Source: Mesaphorura yosii
Lineage: Eukaryota; Arthropoda; Collembola; Poduromorpha; Tullbergiidae
Length of the DNA stretch: 64,000 nt
Assembly: GCA_009869945.1 (NCBI GenBank)
Contig: WIXG01000021.1
Span: 248,001-312,000 of the forward strand
Reading direction: 5' to 3'
Numbering within the stretch: the first letter of the stretch is position 1; each line of letters starts with the position of its first letter. Below the pieces are notes generated by a model. That model was not told where the DNA came from and did no database searches. It saw nothing but the letters and a program-made list of their open reading frames with translations. Shown piece after piece: positions 1 to 6,788 of the stretch. The position numbers and the translations under genes are program-made.

Positions 1-57
1 ATTGGTGACGGTGATTAGGATAATGATATAATGCACCTCTTCTTGTTTGCTTTCCAG

Positions 58-1688
58 CTCATGTCACCGCGTCCTTCACCTTGATCGCCGTCGTGTTTCC
101 GGACAACGTCTCAACCGTCTTTGTGAGTCCAGCTCCAGCAAATTCCATGCGTGCATGCATTCGTGTTCTCAATTCTTCTCGAGAACGGGATTACAATTAC
201 GATTTTATAACCTTTGTTTTGTTTCTTTTCTTGGCGCGCACGCACACGCAGGCCATGATGGAAACGTGCACTGGGCTCGGGCTCATCGTCGGTCCAGTCG
301 TGGGCGGGGCCCTGCATCAGGTAGTGATTACAACAATGACTTGCCTTGACTTTGACAATTAAACACTAAGCAGTCAACCTTCGACTAATTGTCTATGTAT
401 TTCCTTGTCCAGTTGGGCGGTTTCACGGTTCCATTCGTGGCTATCGGTGGACTGCTGTTCCTGTGCTTTGTCTTTGGATACGTTACGTTAATGCGACTTG
501 ACATGAGCGCCAACAACAAGGAAGACGACCCTACAGAAAAGCAGTACGGTTACCGGGATATCCTGACCATTCCAGTCGTGGCCCTGTCTGGACTTTCTAT
601 CCTCACGGCAGCAATTAGCATCGGATACAATGCCCCTGTGCTGGAGAGACACATTGCAAGAGTAAGCGAAATTTACCAATTTGTCAATTCTTTCAAATTC
701 ATTTTCACGGGCTTTTACAGTTTAACCTGACCAAAGTGGAGACTGGGCTCGTATTCATCATCAACGGAGGTACGTACGCCATAACGGCTCCATTCTGGGG
801 TCGACTTTGCGACAAACTCGAACGCCCACGATTCTTGACTCTCCTCGGAGCCGTTTTCATCCTCATCGGCTTCTTGTTCATTGGACCAATCTTCTTCATA
901 CCTTTCGACACGTAAGCAACCCAATGCAGCATTGCAATTAAAAATTAATTCTTGCCTCGTAACCTTCACCTCTCATCTTTCTCCCACGGCAGAATCTTGT
1001 GGGTTACCTGCTTCGGACTCTTCATTCAAGGTCTCGGCCTGGGAGCCAACTTTGTGTCAGGATTCGCACTGGCGCTCAAAGACTCCATGTAAGCTTGGCG
1101 CTTAGCGCAGCGTATTTAAATTACATAACCAATTACGTGAGCAACGCGCATGCAGCGATCTCATAATGAATTATAATGGCTTAATTGTGCGCGATTCCCA
1201 CAACGTGCGATTTAATTATTGGTTTGGCGTTGAATTGTTGAATTGCATTGAATTTGTATTGGCTTTGTTATTTAATAGCGCTAATGGGTTGCCGGACGGA
1301 ATTGGAACGTACGGATTGGTGTCTGGACTCTGGATGAGCGCCTTTTCACTGGGAAACTTCATCGGACCATGTGAGCGGATAAAAATGCGAATGCATTAAA
1401 GCGTGAAGGTGTCCGTAGGATCTCAACTAAAACCTGATTTTTCTGCTTCCAGCTCTTTCTGGAGTGCTTCAAGACAATGTCGGCTATCGCGTCGGTTCCA
1501 TTTCGGTGATGGGAGTTCAGGTGGTCGTTGTGCTCATCGCGCTCGTGTTCCTGGTTCGAGGAAACCGCGATCGGGATCCGGCGCAGAAGAAAGACGCATC
1601 CGCCACCGAGCTCGAAGTGGACGCTGAAAGCGGGATCGCTGTGCGCCAAGCGAAATTCTTCACCACCGCGTTTGACGAGAAATTCTAA
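58..1688 (+). CDS. SLC18B1: SLC18B1-like MFS transporter, paralog 1 (5' end outside window)
   Basis: C-terminal 331 residues of a vesicular-polyamine-transporter-like major facilitator. Exons 58-122, 252-320, 413-661, 721-911, 993-1088, 1279-1370 and 1453-1688 have GT-AG introns, and all phases join in one frame. The order of family landmarks matches the complete paralogs downstream: 'FPDNVSTVF', then 'METCTGLGLIVGPVVGG', then 'GPIFFIP' and 'GTYGLVSGLW'. The N-terminal five or so membrane helices lie upstream of the window. The last intron (1371-1452) is at a position not seen in the other paralogs. The cytosolic tail is charged but lacks the dileucine seen in most siblings. Family assignment is from remembered human SLC18B1 motifs. 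The exact substrate is inferred. Confidence 0.88.
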
Positions 1689-2185: not shown

Positions 2186-3304
2186 CTAATAATTTGAATT
2201 GCTCTCCAGCAGAATTCCATTCGCATTCTTGACGAGCACCTCGAACGGTTGATGTGAGTGGTTAATCTCCTTCTGAGTCACAAAAACTGTGCACTTCTTC
2301 GAACTGCCTTCCACAAATCCAATGTGAAGTTTTTCCAGCTGCTTTCGACCAATGTACAAAACTTCTCCAATGTCACTCTTTCCGCCTATCACAGCATGAG
2401 GTGGCATGGCCTGCCCGGGCGGCAAGTTGATCCATTCCAGTGAGTCAGGATGTGCGGTTAATATCTGCAAGATAACAATTAATATTAGACAAGTCGCAAA
2501 AATAGTTTGCATTGATTTACTCACATCAACCATCGACTTACCTCAAATGCCTTAGTGAAGAATATTTTTTCACCCCACACGAATGTGGCCTTTCCATCCG
2601 TCGGTCTGAAGAAGCCTGGAACAAGCGCCTTGTTGGGAAGTAATTTTCTAGCAACATAAACCTTCCCGTTTTCGTATCCACCGGAGAAAGAATCTTCTGG
2701 AACCGTATCTGCAGATTTTGCTTCGGCCCAGTAATAGCACCTTAGCACGTTTGACTTTACGCTCTGCTTGCCCTTCTCATTAAGCGGACCGTACCTACGA
2801 GAAACACACGGAAAGTTATAGACTCCAATTTTAGCCACCAAAAAAAATGCTTGATTGATCAACTAACCTGTATATGCAGGTCCCGAGATGATACTTGAGA
2901 GCATCACCAGTCACTTTTTGATCACAGCCAAAGTTTTTGTAGTGGCAATGGAATTTACACAGTCTTATGATATTCTCGTAAACAAAGTTCCTAGAATCTG
3001 TGAATTCACTTTTGCAAAGATGACAATGAGCAAGCTTTGGTCGGCATTCCCCACAAATACTGTGACCATTCACGCAGTTGTAAATCGGTGGCAACGGCAC
3101 TTCATTGCATACTGGACACTCCAAGACCATATTCAAAGCTCCAGCGGTTGGGAGCTCGGCGACTTCTCCTCCCATCAAGCTGCAAGAGTATTGCATACAA
3201 TTCGGATAAAATAATTATACATGTCAAAATAGCAAGGGTGAACGCGTTCAGTCGTTCAGTTACTAAACTTACAATTCAGGCTTTTCAAGCTGTTCCATGG
3301 CCAT
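2186..3304 (-). CDS. RING / SIAH-type zinc finger protein fused to two DM9 repeats
   Basis: Predicted 291-residue protein from exons 3304-3273, 3179-2868, 2794-2542 and 2464-2186; total length is divisible by three. The start chosen is ATG at 3304 (MAMEQLEKPEF...), with an in-frame stop just upstream and a good donor at 3272. Residues ~28-65 form a SIAH-type RING (CPVC...CVNGHSICGEC...CHLC). Next comes a SIAH-like second zinc finger (CKFHCHYKNFGC...H...C, ~85-115). The C-terminal half is not the usual SIAH substrate-binding domain. It contains two DM9 (DUF3421) repeats with 'GGYENGKVYVARK...VPG' and 'AVIGGKSDIGEVLYIGRK...FEVL'. RING-SIAH modules act as E3 ubiquitin ligases; DM9 domains bind mannose-type glycans in studied invertebrate proteins. 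A ubiquitin ligase with glycan or pathogen recognition is inference. No signal peptide is seen, so it is probably cytosolic. Confidence 0.85.
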
Positions 3305-4232
3305 CAGGATCTAAAATCCCAGATCTAAATCGGTTGAGCTTTTGCGAGGAGGGCAAGGAAATTTAGTGTAGTGAATGACAAGGTTCTACGGCCGCAGAGC
3401 AGATGCTTCACTTCACGATTCCTGTTCGACAGAAAAGCAGTAGTTACTCTACAGGAATATTAGACTGGAAAAAGCTTAAGAATATAAATATTCGCTCACC
3501 ATATCGTAAATTAGTAATTCGGTGATAGAATAGACGTCCCTCTCAGCTGATCCAATGTTAGCAAACAGATTGGCGATTGCGATTGGCTAATGATTGTGGC
3601 ACTATACAATAACGCGATTCATTGCGCTGCTATCTTTGATTCAAGGCTACTGAGACTGGAATTGCTGCTAATAACAGGTTAACCACAACCTTTCCATGTT
3701 GGCATTATCAGTTAGCTGCTGTAACATCTGGCTATGTACCCGCACCGAATCTAAAGACCAACCAAGACTACTACGTAGCGCAAAACTTGCAACCGAATTT
3801 TGTTTTTTCAACTTCACCGCAACTGAACTGCAGACATAAACACGGATGAGTCATATGAGTTTTGAATTAGCTAGCAAAAAGGAATCAGCATTAATATGCA
3901 ACCTGTGCTTGAAGACTCGCGATCTTGCCATTCCATTTCTTTGTTTCGGATTTCATGCTTCAAAGGTCTGCTGTGCTGCACTTATAAACTTTGCACCGAT
4001 GTTACGTGATTATAATCGCGTAAAAAACATAAACTTAATTAAACATTTTTCATTTTTAATGCATACATAAAAAGTCCATAATTCGTTCGTGCTAAATAAC
4101 TGTCAGTAAGCGGTATTAAAAACGCATCAATAACGACATCCAAGAGATAACTATTTTTGTCATTACGCTTTTGGGCTATTTTTTCTTTCGCTTAACGGCT
4201 TTCATGGGGGATTACGAAAGGCTACTGGCCAG
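3305..4232. other. Intergenic, no gene seen
   Basis: Lies between the 5' end of the RING-DM9 gene and the 3' end of NO66, both minus strand. It must hold the promoter and 5' UTR of the former and the 3' UTR of the latter. Only short unsupported open frames are present. Confidence 0.5.
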
Positions 4233-6788
4233 TCACAGGCGTTGTACTTCTTCCAAGGCTTCCACTTCGTCATTGTCGTCGTCTTCTGGTTCGGACTCTA
4301 GGGAGTCGTCATCGGCGTCCATGTCCATATCTTCGTCATCGTCATCTTCATTATCTTCTTCATCAATGTCATCTTGGTCGTCATCCTCATCGCTTTCACT
4401 GTCCCCCATAAGCAACTCGTTCATTTCACCGCCGTCAGTTGGCTCCAAGGGCTCTTTAGTCAGCAGAAGCCCTTTCTCCCATAAATCGGACGCAGTTTGA
4501 AGCTGCGAGCATGACAGTTAAAAATTTAGCGTCACGACTCACGAATTGAAGAGGAAATTTCATGATCATTGATTGTTTTACCTTGAGAATCTCGTCTTCG
4601 ATTGGAAGGTCCTGAATCTTTGTGTACTCAGGATATCGGCTGATTAAATACTTTATGCCCTCGACAGCTTCCTCAGGAATTTCCAGCACTTGAGGCTCTT
4701 CGCCGTGATACTCCAACGAATTTTCAAGTGTGAAGTAAATCTTTATAATGTTGTCTTCGAACAAAAGGCGCATGCAATTCTTCCTGATTAGCTTGATCTC
4801 CACGTCCGGGCTGATTTCGCAAGAATTGTACACACGGCCGTTTGTCATGAACTCCCCGCCTCCGTACACGCTCTGTTCTTGTTCTTTGGAGTTGACGAAA
4901 GGAGGCAGCGCGTCGGACATGAACTTCTTTCCGACTTGGTCCGCAGCGTAATCGCAAGGTACCTTCAGCAAGTCCTGCATCAAGCTCCCCAGCATCTTTT
5001 GGAACTCGTTCCGTTTTTTTGCGATTGATTTGTCTTTGCTAGTTGAATGCGCCAATCCCATGTAGGATAAGAAATCAGTCGATAATCCCTTGCGAAACTT
5101 GACGGAGTTCAGCTGGGCTTGTTCCAAAGCCATTGGCAAATACTACAAAAACGAAACTAATTAAATTTCTGTGGTCAGTTAGACTGCCTATGAGCAACTT
5201 GTACCTGTTTCAAGAAATCGCCGTACGTATTTGTTTGGTAGCACGAAATCGTGATATGGAGTGAGTGTGCGCCTTCGACCGCTTTCGCCTGATGAATTGT
5301 GCCCCGTGGGAAGTAAAGCATGTCTCCCTCCTCCAAAACCACGTCTAGGATAGGCTTCCCCAAATTATCAGTTTCTTCGTTAAAGTTTCCACTGGAGAAC
5401 CTGGGCAGTTCTTCCGCCGCTGTTCGTGGGGCATACAATTTCCAGTGCTTCTTTCCTTCAACTTGTAAAATGAAGGCCTCAATGTCATCGTAATGCGGGG
5501 CAAATCCTTGAGTGCCAGGCGGGGTCAAGTATACGTTCGCTCCAACAAATGTTCCAAAAAGTTCCTGAAGTAGAAATAAACACTAGTAATTAGTAATTTA
5601 ATCAGGACCACTTTAGGCCCGGCCTTACCTGCAAGGACGCATTGAGCCTCCATAAATTCTTAATGTACGTCTGTGGGTTCAGAATTCTGACGCTGCAGCC
5701 ATTGTTGTAGAAATCCCAAACGACGGGCGGCAGAGCTCGGCCTTCTGGGTTATGAGTTTCTCGTACTCCATCAGTATACGATGTCAAATCGACATTTTTT
5801 CCAAAGAACAGCTTGTTGTCTCTCAGCATATCGTCCAAAAGCTCTGATGAAAGCAACCATTTAAAGTATTTGGAGCCATTCTTCAACAGCAGGGGCTTCC
5901 TTTCCCAGTAGTTGGAGAAAAATTGGCCAGAAGACGTTGGTGAGATTAGCCACTCAAATAGTGCCTGACCATGCTTTACGCTGTCTTCAATCACTTGCGA
6001 ATTAATCAATGACTTGATGTTAATATTTGGTTTGCTTCCATCTTCAGCTGAAATTCCAGGCTTCGTCTTGAAGGAGCTTGACATATTTTGACCTGATGCT
6101 GCTTTACCGGTGATATTCTTCTTCATCGATGACGGTGCACCTGCAGCAGGGGCGGACTTTCGACTCGTCATTTTCTCGACTGTCTTCTTTCCAGTTTCAG
6201 AGCTAATTTTTTTTACAGGATGAAGTTCGATTCGCTTCTTCTTTGTGGCCACTTCAGTTTCTGCTGGGTTGGACTGAGTCGCCTTCTTGAGTGTCTGGTT
6301 TGGTTTTACTTTTGCTCCTTCGATCATCTTGACGGCAGAGACCTCAGATTCGGAAGCACCATTCTGATCGCTCATCGCCGCTCTCTTCTTCGCCTTTCTT
6401 GCCTTACGTTTCTCCTTCTTTGAGCTATTGGCATTTTCAGTTGAAGCTGGAGTCGGAGGCGTAATATGCGAACCTGGCGTCGAAAATACACTCTTCTTAG
6501 TATTGCCCGAGGCGGTGCCATTGTTGGTTCCATTGCCCTGCTGCCCACCCCCCTTCTTGTTTTTGGGAGTATCCTCTTCCTTCTTGACCTTGTATTTATT
6601 CCGTTTATTTGGGTTTGGCTTATGATCTTCGTAAGACTTCACTCCCGGTACCTAAAATTTCGTGACCCAAATTAGCCATCCAATCACTGACTTAATCTTA
6701 ATTCTTAATGTAGGTTTAAACTTACCAGCTTTCTGTACACTGCAAATGCAGACAGCTTGTTAACGTCGACTTCGACAGAATCCTTCAT
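4233..6788 (-). CDS. NO66: Ribosomal oxygenase NO66 / RIOX1 (JmjC 2-oxoglutarate dioxygenase)
   Basis: Predicted 758 residues from five exons (6788-6726, 6651-5629, 5564-5205, 5142-4582, 4502-4233); phases and total length check. Residues ~22-225 are Lys/Ser/Thr-rich and disordered, with nuclear-localisation-like basic runs. The JmjC barrel spans ~250-480. Visible iron ligands are His386 and Asp388 in '[12 protein letters not shown]', with His453 in 'PRGTIHQA' the probable third; Lys401 in 'GKKHWKLY' is typical of the family. The winged-helix region follows. NO66 enzymes hydroxylate a histidine in ribosomal protein uL2 and have been reported as histone lysine demethylases; they act in the nucleolus. 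The last ~60 residues are an extreme Asp/Glu run encoded by GAC/GAT/GAA codons. All expected catalytic residues are present. Confidence 0.95.

What the first reader, a model, noticed from the sequence alone, without database searches (positions are those of the whole stretch)
2186..3304. RING/SIAH zinc-finger E3 module fused to two DM9 repeats in place of the SIAH substrate-binding domain
The four-exon model gives one continuous protein in which the N-terminal half is clearly SIAH-like (RING plus second finger) and the C-terminal half carries two DM9 units ('GGYENGKVYVARK', 'AVIGGKSDIGEVLYIGRK'). DM9 domains are known as glycan-binding modules tied to invertebrate immunity; SIAH proteins select substrates through a different C-terminal fold. 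A swap would join ubiquitin ligation to glycan or microbe recognition in the cytosol. I do not know of a described protein with this order.
Basis: partly seen in the sequence, partly recalled or inferred. Interest (0 to 1): 0.75.

Follow-up and report, generated by a model that had tools for sequence, protein, structure and literature searches.

The report
SINA-type ubiquitin ligase with DM9 domains
A gene in this arthropod-like genome joins the enzyme half of a SIAH/SINA ubiquitin ligase to a pair of lectin-type DM9 domains, in the place where SIAH has its substrate-binding half; the same swap recurs in two more genes of the genome, but in this copy the known sugar-binding residues are largely gone.

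Summary
Four minus-strand exons (3304-3273, 3179-2868, 2794-2542, 2464-2186) splice in frame into 291 aa. Pfam finds Sina_RING (47.3 bits, cut-off 29.3) and DM9 (64.8, cut-off 26.2). Residues 26-114 match the RING and first zinc finger of SIAH1; the second finger and the TRAF-like substrate domain are absent, replaced by one tandem DM9 pair.

It is unlikely to be a model accident: two further loci (C360, C9) show the same order, with the same phase-2 intron at the junction and phase-0 intron between DM9 units. SINA-like paralogues without DM9 share the junction intron, so exon shuffling is likely. A fourth gene (C656) joins a different RING to DM9 within one open exon.

The glycan/microbe reading is weak for this copy: of the CGL1 mannose contacts, Lys43 and Lys114 are both Phe and Asp22 is Glu. 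C360 keeps more. Best reading: a SINA-type E3 whose receptor half is a DM9 pair with an altered, unknown ligand. Transcripts and ligase activity could not be tested; the species was not identified. Nine literature searches found no RING-DM9 protein.

The parts
3273..3304 (-). exon 1, start codon at 3304
   Evidence: sequence; in-frame TAG three codons upstream; donor GTAAGT
2868..3179 (-). exon 2: RING finger and first SIAH-type zinc finger
   Evidence: splice sites and frame; Pfam Sina_RING; SIAH1 9g0l
3014..3118 (-). Sina_RING match, residues 32-66, eight zinc ligands present
2876..2947 (-). first SIAH-type finger, C-x6-C-x11-H-x3-C, residues 89-112
2795..2867 (-). phase-2 intron at the RING/DM9 junction
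   Evidence: same position in C360 and C9; donor at the same place in ten DM9-less paralogues
2542..2794 (-). exon 3: linker and DM9 unit 1
2465..2541 (-). phase-0 intron between the DM9 units (E|IL)
   Evidence: same place in C360 and C9, C656 and C1
2186..2464 (-). exon 4: DM9 unit 2 and stop codon

Best explanation
The gene encodes a SINA-type RING ubiquitin ligase, probably cytosolic, whose receptor half has been exchanged for a tandem DM9 module. Shown: the fused reading frame in the genome, the two domains, two more loci with the same order and the same two key introns, and the loss of most CGL1 mannose contacts in this copy. Inferred: the exchange arose by exon shuffling at a phase-2 intron that the expanded SINA-like family carries after its first SIAH finger; the RING recruits a ubiquitin-loaded E2; the DM9 pair binds the target in place of the SIAH SBD; and since the mannose pocket has been rewritten here, the target of this copy is probably a protein or another ligand rather than terminal mannose.
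For: Pfam and PDB matches. Three loci RING-then-DM9 on one strand with gaps of 547 (window), 247 (C360) and 392 bp (C9) between the family matches and with introns of phase 2 and phase 0 at matching places. GT exactly 8 bases after the last finger Cys codon in 13 of the 14 stretches in which the finger pattern was found in its proper place, the exception being the canonical SIAH (22 stretches from 22 of the 24 Sina_RING loci examined, 8 without a usable match). A DM9 profile of five sequences that include this one finds CGL1 at 3.4e-24. No signal peptide or membrane segment is apparent by eye; no program was run for that.
Against: No transcript, protein or activity data. The proline between the last two RING cysteines of the canonical gene (CPTC in C27) is absent here (CHLC), in C360 (CGLC) and in C9 (CALC), so ligase activity may be weak; its role in E2 contact is recalled. 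The other two fusions are only 35% and 31% identical to this one; C9 has two more introns inside its second DM9 unit; trees neither show nor reject a single origin.
Confidence: 0.6

Rival explanations
1. One reading: a cytosolic lectin-E3 that ubiquitinates microbes or glycan-exposing vesicles through mannose binding by DM9.
For: DM9 lectins CGL1/CgDM9CP-1 bind mannose and microbes (passages of PMC4932603 and PMC5712788). The C360 copy keeps K43, E59, K114 and E130; C656 keeps K43, E59 and E130.
Against: Window copy: D22E, K43F, H52T, E59I, K114F, E130N (the E59 column is uncertain by two places). The abstract of PMC5712788 names Asp22 and Lys43 as critical. C9 also lost K43, E59, K114 and E130. 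Asp22 is absent from all 4 RING-linked DM9 domains in the table, though also from 2 of the 6 others.
Confidence: 0.17
2. A SINA-like protein with a weak or dead RING that acts as a regulator or decoy, for example by dimerising with other family members.
For: The C-P-x-C proline is lost in all three fusions; CGL1 is a dimer, SIAH too (recalled).
Against: All eight RING zinc ligands and a basic residue after the last Cys are kept.
Confidence: 0.13
3. Decaying paralogue without function.
For: Pocket residues lost; divergent sequence.
Against: 291 codons open over four exons, canonical splice borders, zinc ligands and both DM9 cores kept.
Confidence: 0.06
4. Two separate genes, or a wrong gene model, that only look fused.
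For: No transcript data.
Against: Same layout in 3 loci; the first DM9 exon lacks a start of its own.
Confidence: 0.04

Closest known systems
SIAH1 / seven in absentia (SINA) E3 ligases
   Same: RING and first SIAH finger (9g0l over residues 26-114; Sina_RING)
   Different: second SIAH finger and TRAF-like substrate-binding domain absent; RING lacks the C-P-x-C proline of the canonical gene in this genome
CGL1 / CgDM9CP-1, oyster DM9 lectins (PDB 5mh0, 5id8; PDB label Natterin-3)
   Same: two tandem DM9 units; a five-sequence DM9 profile that includes this one matches at 3.4e-24
   Different: 21% identical over the aligned DM9 part; most mannose-binding residues replaced; fused to a RING
Glycan-reading SCF ligases FBXO2/FBXO6 (recalled, not searched)
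   Same: an E3 whose receptor is a lectin-like fold
   Different: F-box proteins with another sugar-binding domain, no DM9, no RING in the same chain
Other DM9 fusions: natterins (DM9 + ETX/MTX2) and DM9 + farnesoic acid O-methyltransferase domain (PMC5712788, passages)
   Same: DM9 joined to another domain
   Different: the fusions named in the passages that I saw have no RING

Membership tests
SIAH/SINA E3 ligase | SINA-type RING | tested here: met
   PF21362 47.3 bits, cut-off 29.3
SIAH/SINA E3 ligase | two SIAH zinc fingers (Sina_ZnF) | tested here: not met
   first finger by ligand spacing and by the SIAH1 match; PF21361 is not reported at E up to 1; second finger absent from the sequence
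SIAH/SINA E3 ligase | TRAF-like substrate-binding domain | tested here: not met
   no PF03145 at E up to 1; hhalign of the DM9 profile to the canonical SBD gives probability 0.5%
SIAH/SINA E3 ligase | ubiquitin ligase activity | not testable with these tools
   needs biochemistry
DM9 domain proteins | DM9 profile over cut-off | tested here: met
   PF11901 64.8 bits, cut-off 26.2
DM9 domain proteins | tandem pair of units as in CGL1 | tested here: met
   alignment with CGL1 over both units
DM9 mannose lectins | site A D22, K43, H52, E59 and site B K114, E130 | tested here: not met
   E, F, T, I and F, N; the E59 column is uncertain by two residues, a Glu lies two places before
DM9 mannose lectins | binding to mannose or microbes | not testable with these tools
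   needs protein

The most novel reading that the evidence does not exclude
This lineage has evolved a small repertoire of DM9-armed ubiquitin ligases from two different RING classes (three SINA-type genes and one other RING with zinc finger and coiled-coil-like stretch): a cytosolic counterpart of TRIM-type immune ligases, in which some members still read glycans (C360, C656) and others, such as this one, have been retuned to new ligands.
Probability: 0.25. Interest if true: 0.8.

Novelty: new variant of a known kind. Interest (0 to 1): 0.6.

Why it matters
DM9 is best known as a surface or secreted mannose-binding immune module, while SIAH ligases choose substrates by a quite different fold. 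A recurrent fusion suggests that DM9 can serve as the receptor half of an E3, gives a natural case of receptor exchange at a fixed intron, and makes the role of intracellular DM9 testable with a defined output (ubiquitination).

Tried and rejected
Single-origin test of the three SINA-DM9 genes: a RING-finger tree of 16 rows (16 of the 24 Sina_RING loci; 8 left out as partial, divergent or not fetched) has no starred branch, p-AU 0.43 for one clade; a DM9 tree of 10 rows has one starred branch, the two astacin fusions, and p-AU 0.32 for one clade. Both undecided. By pairwise identity the window DM9 is no closer to C360 (29%) and C9 (26%) than to C656 or C291 (30% each).

Relatives elsewhere: the alignment of the three fusions found no relative in viral contigs (26 pattern matches, none confirmed) or in the prokaryote genome contigs (37, none confirmed); no surprise for an animal gene. 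NCBIfam: no match.

A fatty-acid-binding protein gave no clue; 66 Chitin_bind_4 matches fit an arthropod. I went no further.

C-terminal halves of SINA-like paralogues without DM9: of 7 scanned (stretches read by eye from open frames, some partial), 2 have Sina_TRAF scores below the cut-off and 5 nothing relevant; a profile of 4 of them finds no SIAH structure, and hhalign to the canonical SBD aligns only the second-finger region, at probability 5%. So I call them SINA-like with a divergent tail, not proven SBD.

A RING regular-expression scan of 11 loci with the other DM9 genes found nothing; it is too strict, since it also misses the RING of C656 that Pfam finds.

No structure prediction was run: the one attempt ended in an error because the stretch held a stop codon, and I did not repeat it, as the spliced DM9 half is not one contiguous stretch.

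Full report
The observation. The frame is closed on both sides: an in-frame TAG three codons before the ATG and a stop ending at 2186. Pfam places Sina_RING at 32-66 and DM9 at 158-267, both well over cut-off, in the whole protein and in each half alone. phmmer against the PDB aligns 26-114 with SIAH1 chain 9g0l (3.2e-14). The RING has all eight zinc ligands and the finger has the C-x6-C-x11-H-x3-C spacing. What SIAH has next, a second finger and the TRAF-like substrate domain, is not there.

It is a small family. In the same 93-Mb genome, searched exon by exon, 24 of 39 listed Sina_RING matches pass the cut-off, but only one gene, C27, gives Sina_TRAF matches (two exons). DM9 gives 14 matches in 12 loci. 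Two of these, C360 (L065) and C9 (L056), have a Sina_RING match 247 and 392 bases upstream on the same strand. Spliced by hand they give proteins of 273 and 305 residues, counted from the RING exon, which pass both Pfam cut-offs. All three share the phase-2 intron after the first finger and the phase-0 intron between the DM9 units; C9 has two further phase-1 introns in its second unit. Random placement would give 0.0015 such pairs within 1 kb.

How the swap may have happened. I examined 22 stretches, one for each of 22 of the 24 Sina_RING loci (the other two were not fetched). In 14 the first-finger pattern was found in its proper place; in 13 of these the last Cys codon is followed by two codons and two bases and then GT, and the exception is the canonical SIAH of C27, which has no GT there. 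Eight stretches gave no usable match. Ten of the 13 lie in paralogues for which no DM9 was listed on the same contig. Four tails of paralogues without DM9, aligned, share Cys and His positions of a second finger and are divergent beyond it; Pfam gives Sina_TRAF only below its cut-off in 2 of 7 tails. The simplest reading is exon shuffling: one RING-finger cassette with a phase-2 border and different 3' cassettes. Whether the three DM9 genes come from one fusion is open: trees neither support nor reject it.

A second kind of RING-DM9 gene. At C656 (L004/L007) an open frame of 317 residues holds a RING (zf-C3HC4_2 39.1 bits, cut-off 27), a zinc finger weakly like Sina_ZnF (20.6 bits, cut-off 32), a coiled-coil-like stretch (by eye) and DM9 unit 1, with no intron between them; unit 2 follows after a phase-0 intron at the same place as in the SINA-type genes. 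The best PDB matches of its RING part are a RING2/BMI1 chimera, RAG1 and LNX; no SIAH chain is among the 60 listed. RING plus DM9 therefore occurs here with at least two RING types. The same phase-0 intron is present in the C1 gene, where no RING was found nearby, and absent from C291 and the two astacin fusions, which are open across that point. Two more DM9 genes, C456 and C202, carry an astacin domain before the DM9, each in one open frame; the zinc-site motif HExxH is present in C456 and not seen in C202 (by eye). DM9 is a promiscuous module in this genome.

What the DM9 half may bind. A profile of five DM9 domains of this genome finds the oyster lectin CGL1 at 3.4e-24. PMC4932603 (passages) gives the mannose contacts: site A Asp22, Lys43, Glu59, His52, Phe126 and the amide of Ala127; site B Lys114, Glu130, Phe55, Tyr123 and the amide of Ala56. 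PMC5712788 (passages, abstract among them) names Asp22 and Lys43 as critical. The alignment of 10 DM9 domains with CGL1 gives, for D22/K43/E59: D/K/E in C291, C1 and both astacin fusions; E/K/E in C656, C1033 and C75; Q/K/E in C360; E/M/R in C9; E/F/I in the window. For K114/E130: K/E in C360, C291, C1 and C456; Y/E in C656; Y/A in C9; S/A in C202; N/A in C1033; not covered in C75; F/N in the window. The aromatic partners at 55 and 123 remain aromatic in the window (W, F). K43F is firm because PG stands before it in the alignment; E59 in the window is uncertain by two places. Asp22 is lost in all four RING-linked domains but also, to Glu, in two of the six others, so this is a tendency, not a rule. 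Two other loci (C864 and the second C456 locus) were left out of this table because unit 1 was missing or partial.

Likely working. A SINA-type E3 in which DM9 replaces the substrate domain; the target of this copy is probably not terminal mannose. The RING keeps its zinc ligands and a basic residue after the last Cys, but all three fusions lack the C-P-x-C proline of the canonical gene (sequences), so activity must be tested. Lectin-like E3 receptors exist elsewhere (FBXO2/FBXO6, recalled), so the principle is not foreign.

Literature. Searches of open-licence PMC full text, all seen as listings: DM9 with RING and SIAH (2 papers, one mention each of DM9 and SIAH); DM9 domain with arthropod (8); DM9 with tardigrade (0); DUF3421 with RING finger (0); DM9 with mannose, lectin and crystal structure (7); DM9 with astacin (1); DM9 with ubiquitin ligase (3, one DM9 mention each); DM9 with RING finger (0); two of the terms seven in absentia, gene family expansion and SINA-like (6). 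No title or abstract opening describes a RING-DM9 protein. I read passages of two of these papers and no more. No eukaryotic sequence database was at hand, so a deposited but undescribed relative may well exist.

Verdict. A real, unusual domain swap in what looks like a working gene family; the fusion is well supported at the DNA level, the function is inferred.

Noticed in passing
L007 / G000:C656 about 3563-4795: A RING unlike the SINA type, a zinc finger and a coiled-coil-like stretch joined to DM9 in one open exon: a second kind of RING-DM9 gene.
   Followed up: partly
L002 (C456:29925-30257) and L005 (C202:114407-114763): Astacin metalloprotease domain followed by DM9 in one open frame, with the CGL1 D22/K43/E59 residues kept.
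   Followed up: partly
G000, 24 Sina_RING loci: Expansion of SINA-like RING genes, only one with Sina_TRAF matches; in ten without DM9, of 22 examined, the same phase-2 donor follows the first finger.
   Followed up: partly
window 4233-6651, minus strand (limits by eye): Ribosomal oxygenase 1-like gene (JmjC_2 and RIOX1_C_WH), an ordinary neighbour.
   Followed up: no
window 1-1688, plus strand (limits by eye): End of a multi-exon transporter-like gene; one exon has an MFS_1 match below the cut-off.
   Followed up: no
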